Shown here piece after piece: positions 2,143-2,685 of a stretch of DNA of 43,128 nucleotides. The notes beneath the pieces are model-generated. The model did not search any database, had not been told where the DNA came from, and saw only the letters and a list, made by a program, of their open reading frames with translations. The stretch is taken from positions 1 through 43,128 of the forward strand of contig NZ_BCRA01000049.1 of the NCBI RefSeq assembly GCF_001552355.1. Reading direction: 5' to 3'. Source of the stretch: Microbacterium resistens NBRC 103078. GTDB lineage: Bacteria; Actinomycetota; Actinomycetes; Actinomycetales; Microbacteriaceae. How positions within the stretch are numbered: the first letter of the stretch is position 1; each line of letters starts with the position of its first letter. The position numbers and the translations under genes were made by a program.

Positions 2143-2148
2143 TAGACT
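2143..2148 (+). promoter_or_regulatory. -10 box of the rpmB-rpmG-rpsN operon
   Basis: TAGACT matches the actinobacterial TAnnnT -10 pattern. The -35 region is not convincing. A start about 7 nt downstream would fall near 2155, exactly where the 5' strand of the leader's closing stem begins. Confidence 0.5.
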
Positions 2149-2154
2149 GACTCT

Positions 2155-2227
2155 TTGTCTGCGCACGCTCCTGTGCGTAGTTCGTATGCCTCCCCGTTCC
2201 GAATGTGCGGACGAGGCGTGCAGACAA
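2155..2227 (+). ncRNA. Structured 5' leader RNA of rpmB (three-way junction)
   Basis: The 5' segment TTGTCTGC (2155-2162) is perfectly complementary to GCAGACAA (2220-2227). Between them lie two hairpins: CGCAC/GTGCG (2162-2166 with 2173-2177, one base shared with the closing stem) and a longer arm GCCTC/GAGGC (2188-2192 with 2213-2217) topped by TCCG/CGGA (2198-2201 with 2208-2211) and loop AATGTG. Together they give a closed three-way junction starting at the predicted transcription start. It is followed by a GGCC/GGCC hairpin (about 2243-2254) and the Shine-Dalgarno sequence. This is the layout of ribosomal-protein autoregulatory leaders. I do not recognise it as a named family. The ligand (L28, another protein, or none) is unknown. 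Confidence 0.5.
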
Positions 2228-2278
2228 GGGATCTTGGGTGGGGCCGTCCGGCCTCACGGTAATGAAGGAGTCACCATC

Positions 2279-2515
2279 ATGGCAGCAGTGTGCCAGGTGA
2301 CCGGTGCTGTTCCCGGCTTCGGTCACAACGTCTCGCACTCGCACCGCCGGACGAAGCGCCGCTTCGACCCGAACGTGCAGAAGAAGACCTACTACGTCCC
2401 GTCCCTCGGCCGTAAGGTCACCCTGAACGTGTCCGCCAAGGGCATCAAGGTGATCGACGCGCGCGGCATCGAGAACGTGGTCAAGGACCTCCTTGCGAAG
2501 GGTGTGAAGCTCTAA
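2279..2515 (+). CDS. rpmB: Large-subunit ribosomal protein bL28, cysteine-poor (zinc-independent) form
   Basis: A 78-residue L28. The N-terminal CQVTG block, the [13 protein letters not shown] segment and the [13 protein letters not shown]-terminal block are diagnostic. Only one Cys is present, so the paired CxxC zinc ribbon of C+ paralogues is absent. The start is ATG at 2279 with GAAGGAG centred about 9 nt upstream. The stop TAA overlaps the rpmG start (TAATG). In actinobacteria this C- L28 is typically co-transcribed with C- L33 and S14, often under Zur control. That gene order is seen here, but no Zur-like palindrome was found in the leader. It may be the only L28 of this genome or a zinc-starvation paralogue; the window cannot tell. 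Confidence 0.96.
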
Positions 2516-2685
2516 TGGCGAAGAAGGCTCAGGACGTCCGTCCGATCATCAAGCTGCGCTCGACGGCGGGCACGGGGTACACCTACGTGACCAAGAAGAA
2601 CCGCCGCAACACCCCCGACCGCCTCGTGCTGAAGAAGTACGACCCGGTGGTTCGCAAGCACGTCGAATTCCGCGAGGAGCGTTAA
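2515..2685 (+). CDS. rpmG: Large-subunit ribosomal protein bL33, cysteine-free form
   Basis: A 56-residue L33 recognised from [27 protein letters not shown] and [13 protein letters not shown]. The usual Cys pairs are absent, so it does not bind zinc. Its ATG shares a base with the rpmB stop, indicating translational coupling. It is too short for many ORF callers but has clear family sequence throughout. It assembles near the E site of the 50S subunit. Confidence 0.95.

What the first reader, a model, noticed from the sequence alone, without database searches (positions are those of the whole stretch)
2143..2278. Three-way-junction leader RNA at the transcription start of rpmB-rpmG-rpsN
Seen: a TAGACT -10 places the start at ~2155, the first base of a perfect 8-bp stem (2155-2162 with 2220-2227) enclosing two hairpins, followed by another hairpin and the Shine-Dalgarno. 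Known: many ribosomal-protein operons use structured leaders for autogenous control (L1, L10, L20, S15, actinobacterial L31). Inferred: this is a new or little-described L28-type leader, sensing L28 or another operon product. Its compact closed form and its exact start at the mRNA 5' end are unlikely by chance.
Basis: partly seen in the sequence, partly recalled or inferred. Interest (0 to 1): 0.7.

Follow-up and report, generated by a model that had tools for sequence, protein, structure and literature searches.

The report
Hairpin RNA leader of ribosomal-protein genes
In front of the genes for ribosomal proteins L28, L33 and S14, the Microbacteriaceae genomes examined carry a conserved RNA made of four hairpins; it is likely a feedback brake that one of these proteins is predicted to bind, a kind of control not found described for them in the RNA library and papers searched.

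Summary
The window holds the TAGACT box, the 8-bp repeat (2155-2162/2220-2227) and the hairpins described. Aligning the same leader from 94 chosen loci shows four consecutive hairpins: H1, H2, P4 (CAAG/CUUG, unchanged in 94 of 94) and P5, then GGUA and the Shine-Dalgarno (SD). Of 23 pairs, 17 change on both sides; covariation score 0.549 against 0.196 shuffled, 0 of 500. Rfam has no match. The core motif occurs in 34 of 34 family genomes drawn and, beside L28, in 0 of 362 genomes of other families of the order. The operon is this genome's only L28-L33-S14 set and lacks zinc motifs; eleven zinc-free second copies from sister families mostly carry a Zur-like box (8 of 11), absent here. Best reading: a new ribosomal-protein leader, probably autogenous. 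Ligand unproven (L28, L33 or S14); no rRNA mimicry found.

The parts
2143..2148 (+). -10-like box TAGACT, 6 nt before TTG at 2155
   Evidence: Read; same spacing in 163 of 182 anchored leaders, partly by construction of the anchor rule. Start not mapped.
2155..2261 (+). whole leader RNA as matched by covariance model R1
   Evidence: R1 match 101.9 bits; the window was in the seed, so its own match is by construction; 94 of 94 chosen sources match
2159..2180 (+). hairpin H1 (2159-2166 with 2173-2180), loop GCUCCU 2167-2172
   Evidence: MFE fold, pair probabilities 0.88-0.97; all 6 counted pairs of the helix change on both sides in A4
2184..2221 (+). hairpin H2 (2184-2192 with 2213-2221), apical part variable in length
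   Evidence: MFE fold; 5 of 6 counted basal pairs change on both sides in A4
2225..2236 (+). hairpin P4, CAAG-GGAU-CUUG
   Evidence: stem letters unchanged in 94 of 94 rows, so covariation neither supports nor opposes it; pair probability 0.85-0.86 in the window
2238..2257 (+). hairpin P5 (2238-2245 with 2250-2257), loop GUCC
   Evidence: 6 of 7 counted pairs change on both sides, the seventh (G-C) never varies
2258..2261 (+). conserved GGUA after P5
   Evidence: GGU in 94 of 94 rows, final A in 93 of 94
2265..2270 (+). Shine-Dalgarno AAGGAG; 2266-2271 AGGAGU is complementary to the H1 loop
   Evidence: duplex -9.0 kcal/mol; no leader-specific covariation
2279..2515 (+). rpmB (L28), no CxxC
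   Evidence: Pfam PF00830; only match in the genome; 1 cysteine
2515..2685 (+). rpmG (L33), no cysteine
   Evidence: Pfam PF00471; only match in the genome
2688..2993 (+). rpsN (S14, 101 aa), no cysteine
   Evidence: Pfam PF00253; only match in the genome

Best explanation
A conserved RNA of four consecutive hairpins stands directly upstream of rpmB-rpmG-rpsN in this family, and it likely acts as an autogenous translational brake: an operon product (L28 is the leading guess) is predicted to bind the unchanging P4-P5-GGUA module and would keep ribosomes off the adjacent Shine-Dalgarno. Shown here: the leader-operon arrangement, three hairpins (H1, H2, P5) by covariation, the unchanging module beside the SD, and the restriction to one family within the genomes sampled. 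Inferred: that a protein binds, which one, and that binding represses. In the window the H1 loop could pair with the SD (GCUCCU with AGGAGU), a possible way to hide it; this is untested and has no leader-specific covariation behind it. P5 is not followed by a run of U, so control by transcription termination looks less likely.
For: Covariation: 17 of 23 pairs change on both sides (3 of 500 shuffles reach 17), score 0.549 vs 0.196, 0 of 500 (alignment fitted to the model); independently aligned set 16 of 24, 0 of 500. 94 of 94 chosen sources match once. Core upstream of rpmB in 108 of 109 other loci L002-L110 and 79 of 80 further regions; the two exceptions are variants. 34 of 34 family genomes vs 2 of 362 others, neither with L28 in its locus. 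Single copy in the genome. L28, L33 and S14 are all single there. No Zur-like box at 2 or fewer mismatches in 189 family leaders.
Against: No binding or expression data. No rRNA site resembles the module beyond chance: best own-rRNA score -2.0, shuffled best mean -1.3. None of the three proteins is listed as an r-leader ligand in the passages seen, and E. coli rpmB-rpmG is reported not to respond to its products (PMC10931766, passage). The SD is not buried by the four conserved hairpins themselves. P4 has no variation to test it.
Confidence: 0.58

Rival explanations
1. Autogenous leader as above, but the ligand is S14 or L33 (or a complex), not L28.
For: The three genes lie together in the 146 loci tested that hold L28, so position cannot separate them; the nearest gene is a poor guide to the ligand (PMC7247131 section 7).
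Against: Nothing here favours one of them; rRNA look-alikes of the core in E. coli 16S (1195) and 23S (1648) and in the own 23S lack the P4 hairpin.
Confidence: 0.3
2. The leader is not a regulator: H1 at the extreme 5' end stabilises the mRNA and the rest keeps the start site open, giving high constant expression of an essential operon.
For: H1 starts about 4 nt from the predicted 5' end and its letters vary freely while pairing is kept.
Against: Does not explain the unchanging P4, GG and GGUA letters, which a plain stabiliser would not need.
Confidence: 0.2
3. A ligand other than a ribosomal protein (a metal such as zinc, or a metabolite) is sensed, in keeping with the zinc history of the operon.
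For: The zinc-free set is Zur-controlled elsewhere; a Fur-like C-terminus lies just upstream in 42 of 189 family loci.
Against: With a single zinc-free copy there is no zinc-dependent choice left to make; the leader is found with this one operon only.
Confidence: 0.07
4. The reader's three-way junction is a second state that switches with H1/H2/P4 in the Microbacterium lineage.
For: All 8 pairs form in 47 of 79 anchored named loci and 52 of 182 anchored leaders; 37 of 20000 shuffles contain such a stem; its 3' strand overlaps P4, as a switch would need.
Against: 0 pairs with a change on both sides; pair 4 12.5% and pair 6 25% of 72 representatives; own partners no better than swapped ones, p 0.27; probability 0.03-0.09 in the window.
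Confidence: 0.1

Closest known systems
Ribosomal-protein leaders (r-leaders), e.g. the actinobacterial L31 leaders of Eckert and Weinberg 2020 (PMC7247131: abstract, passages and section 7 seen)
   Same: Conserved structured RNA in the 5' UTR of ribosomal-protein genes, confined to one lineage, supported by covariation
   Different: Other genes and another fold; L28, L33 and S14 are not named as ligands in the passages seen; protein binding not shown here
Zur-controlled zinc-independent rpmB-rpmG-rpsN operon of M. smegmatis (PMC7174638, passages)
   Same: Same three zinc-free proteins, in one operon
   Different: There a back-up set switched by zinc at a Zur box; here the only set, no Zur-like box, RNA leader instead
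E. coli rpmB-rpmG operon (PMC10931766, passage)
   Same: L28 and L33 genes together
   Different: Reported not to respond to increased synthesis of its products

Membership tests
Ribosomal-protein leader (r-leader) | Lies directly upstream of ribosomal-protein genes | tested here: met
   108 of 109 other loci L002-L110, 79 of 80 further regions, the two exceptions being variants
Ribosomal-protein leader (r-leader) | Conserved secondary structure shown by covariation | tested here: met
Ribosomal-protein leader (r-leader) | Bound by a protein that the operon encodes | not testable with these tools
   needs binding assays
Ribosomal-protein leader (r-leader) | Excess of that protein lowers expression | not testable with these tools
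   needs reporter assays
Ribosomal-protein leader (r-leader) | Resemblance to the protein's rRNA site (frequent, not required) | tested here: not met
   best own-rRNA score -2.0 vs shuffled best mean -1.3; look-alikes sit in long-range helices; sequence and secondary structure only, no 3D contacts compared
Any Rfam 15 family | Score above the family's gathering threshold | tested here: not met
   0 matches in the window; at E up to 10 only a mir-4716 match at 14.4 bits, threshold 76
Zur-controlled zinc-free operon | Zinc-free L28-L33-S14 operon | tested here: met
   1, 0 and 0 cysteines
Zur-controlled zinc-free operon | Zur box upstream of rpmB | tested here: not met
   of 189 family loci, own included, 1 at 3 mismatches and 188 none; 9 of 11 sister zinc-free copies at 3 or fewer
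Three-way-junction leader (reader) | Covarying closing stem | tested here: not met

The most novel reading that the evidence does not exclude
When these bacteria lost the zinc-binding copies of L28, L33 and S14, the once zinc-switched back-up operon became the only source of three ribosomal proteins, and its Zur control was replaced by a new feedback RNA with a ligand not seen before in an r-leader. Two other families of the order that also have only a zinc-free L28 carry different conserved leaders at the same place, so such RNAs would have been invented more than once.
Probability: 0.35. Interest if true: 0.75.

Novelty: new member of a known kind. Interest (0 to 1): 0.56.

Why it matters
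None of L28, L33 or S14 appears as an r-leader ligand in the passages read, so a confirmed ligand would add a new RNA-protein contact and a control point for an operon found across a whole family. The contrast with Zur-boxed second copies in sister families makes a general question testable: how a back-up gene set acquires housekeeping control once the primary set is gone.

Tried and rejected
H1 loop with SD: loops are more SD-complementary than their own shuffled letters (-3.89 against -3.36, sd 0.20) but own pairs are no better than swapped ones (-4.13), so kept only as a possibility. rRNA mimicry: E. coli 16S 1195 and 23S 1648 and the own 23S stretch CACAAGGGAGCUUG resemble the core in letters; the two 23S stretches lie in long-range helices. 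Weak R1 matches elsewhere (window 35669, L083 3610, L084 4450; L119, no L28 in that locus) judged chance.

Errors of mine: the 'MPG' query was in the wrong frame and its counts are discarded (right frame). One search printed P5 and H2 probabilities at wrong indices; only the fold, H1, P4, stem and duplex lines are used. One search found L28 in only 4 of 17 loci by a strict pattern and was redone by tblastn.

Rows dropped: 7 of 189 leaders without a clear start anchor or start codon; L179 and L191, mis-anchored; also leaders with the core 120 nt or more from the start (171 of 182 kept, 72 representatives); one search kept 180, 74 representatives. One search was given 69 sources and 94 sources, chosen for diversity from those then held. 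L002-L030 and L031-L110 overlap in species, so loci are not independent.

Full report
What is in the sequence. The genes are L28, L33 and S14 by Pfam; upstream is a methylpurine-DNA glycosylase gene, downstream an HU-type gene. The single-sequence fold is moderately stable: z -2.08, 6 of 200 shuffles fold as well. An 8-bp stem starting at base 1 appears in 37 of 20000 shuffles.

Relatives. A scan of named genomes gave the best 80 loci (capped list), mostly Microbacterium with some Agromyces, Curtobacterium, Salinibacterium, Leucobacter and others; the lineage of one of them was checked as Microbacteriaceae. A search of 299 same-family genomes found L28 in 292. The core motif stands upstream of rpmB in 108 of the 109 other loci L002-L110; L026 has the variant CAAGUCAUCUUGGG. 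Eighty further upstream regions, at places listed, were fetched: 79 of 80 have the core with at most one substitution, and L134 has a five-base P4 loop and CGGAGA in place of CGGUA.

The fold. RNAalifold on 28 aligned leaders gives four consecutive hairpins, not a closed junction. On that alignment 16 of 24 pairs change on both sides, 95.5% of cells pair, and 0 of 500 shuffles reach the observed value in any of the five measures. A covariance model built from it (R1) matches each of 94 chosen sources once. On the resulting alignment, which is fitted to the model and so leans towards it, 17 of 23 pairs change on both sides (3 of 500 shuffles reach 17), and the score is 0.549 against 0.196 shuffled (0 of 500) and at most 0.159 with slid partners. 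H1, H2 and P5 covary. P4 never varies in 94 rows, so covariation says nothing about it. Its stem letters, the GG that follows and GGU after P5 are the same in 94 of 94 rows, the final A in 93. Unchanging letters beside freely changing stems suggest a recognition site (inference).

On the same 28 leaders it shows no pair with a change on both sides. In 72 representatives pair 4 forms in 12.5% and pair 6 in 25%, and own partners do no better than permuted ones (duplex energies p 0.27). It is complete in 52 of 182 anchored leaders, 47 of them among 79 named loci. In the window it lies 2.1 kcal/mol above the best fold. It may be an alternative state in one lineage; nothing here shows selection for it.

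Specificity. Rfam 15 has no match. R1 finds one place in the own genome. In 396 genomes of the order the core pattern occurs in 34 of 34 drawn family genomes and in 2 of 362 others; neither of those two loci of about 3 kb holds L28. In 396 genomes of the phylum R1 hits seven, six of this family and one weak match whose locus has no L28; that search used strict filters that lose weak matches.

Where the operon comes from. L28, L33 and S14 each have one match in the own genome, with 1, 0 and 0 cysteines. In 149 genomes of the order the 10 drawn genomes each of f1 (this family), f2 and f79 have a single close L28; among the remaining 119 there are genomes with two matches, with a distant one only, five without a match and a few with a single close one (e.g. 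G742, G770). Eleven copies without CxxC and six with CxxC were fetched from other families. All 11 without CxxC have L33 and S14 beside them; 8 have a Zur-like palindrome at 2 or fewer mismatches and one more at 3. Of the 6 with CxxC none has either within the 1.1-1.4 kb fetched. Of 189 family loci one has a box at 3 mismatches and none at fewer. In M. smegmatis the zinc-independent rpmB, rpmG and rpsN are Zur-controlled (PMC7174638, passages), and Zur control of such sets is tabulated for other actinobacteria (PMC6103462, passages). I infer that the family's only operon descends from such a set and lost its zinc switch.

A parallel. The 19 f2 and f79 loci examined also have a zinc-free L28 with L33 and S14 beside it and no Zur-like box. 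Upstream they have long stretches with conserved blocks of other sequence; 13 of them were scanned, without a leader match in Rfam up to E = 1. Whether these are structured RNAs was not tested by covariation, and f2 holds at least two types.

Mechanism. An autogenous leader fits best: an unchanging module right before the SD, one copy in the genome, found with this operon only, no run of U after P5. The ligand is open. L28 is preferred only for position, which the r-leader survey calls a poor guide (PMC7247131 section 7). None of the three proteins appears as a ligand in the passages seen, but its Table 1 was cut at the end of the passage. rRNA resemblance was sought in E. coli and in the own rRNA operon and does not exceed shuffled sequence; the two 23S look-alikes lie in long-range helices. 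In the window the H1 loop GCUCCU can pair with AGGAGU at the SD, -9.0 kcal/mol. Across 74 representatives H1 loops are SD-like in composition, but own pairs are no better than swapped ones.

Literature. Searches of the open-licence PMC library listed no report of this leader; listings were capped, and subscription journals and preprints are not in that library. E. coli rpmB-rpmG is reported not to respond to its products (PMC10931766, passage).

Verdict. A real, family-wide, uncatalogued leader RNA of a known kind, with a fold other than the one drawn and an unproven ligand.

Noticed in passing
L236, L239, L244, L249, L251, L254 (family f2), about 200 nt upstream of rpmB: Conserved leader with blocks such as CUUCACCGU..UUCCCGCGG..CUCACCC and, in five of the six, GGUGGCGGGACGC, suggesting nested long-range pairing (CACCG/CGGUG, CCCGC/GCGGG); L250, L252 and L253 of the same family have a different conserved leader. 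No Rfam match in the seven f2 loci scanned.
   Followed up: partly
L237, L238, L240-L243, L245-L248 (family f79), upstream of rpmB: Another conserved leader: GGUGAGACAUC near its start, GAUGUCU near its end in most rows, and AACUGGAGGAGAG before the start codon; no Rfam match in the leaders of the six loci scanned.
   Followed up: partly
42 of 189 family loci, e.g. L026, L027, L134, L141: A Fur-family-like C-terminus (VDVFGxCxxC type, motif recalled) ends just upstream of the leader, so a Zur-like gene is a frequent neighbour although no Zur-like box is found at the leader.
   Followed up: partly
H2 tip in L032, L042, L054, L065, L075, L077, L081, L089: By eye, the variable tip of H2 holds repeat-like pieces (e.g. 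GGTCCCTGAGCTTGTCGAAGGGC or TTTCGACTCGC...GCTCAACGACCGG), as if mobile palindromes can be tolerated there.
   Followed up: no
L080: Record titled Planococcus sp. APC 4015 holds a Microbacterium-like rpmB operon and leader; probably a mislabelled or mixed assembly.
   Followed up: no
L095, L106, L107, L110 (Curtobacterium), L133, L182, L200: Leaders are longer (core about 150-180 nt from the start against mostly 55-110), with conserved extra blocks between H1 and the core and CCAGG before CAAG in most of them.
   Followed up: no
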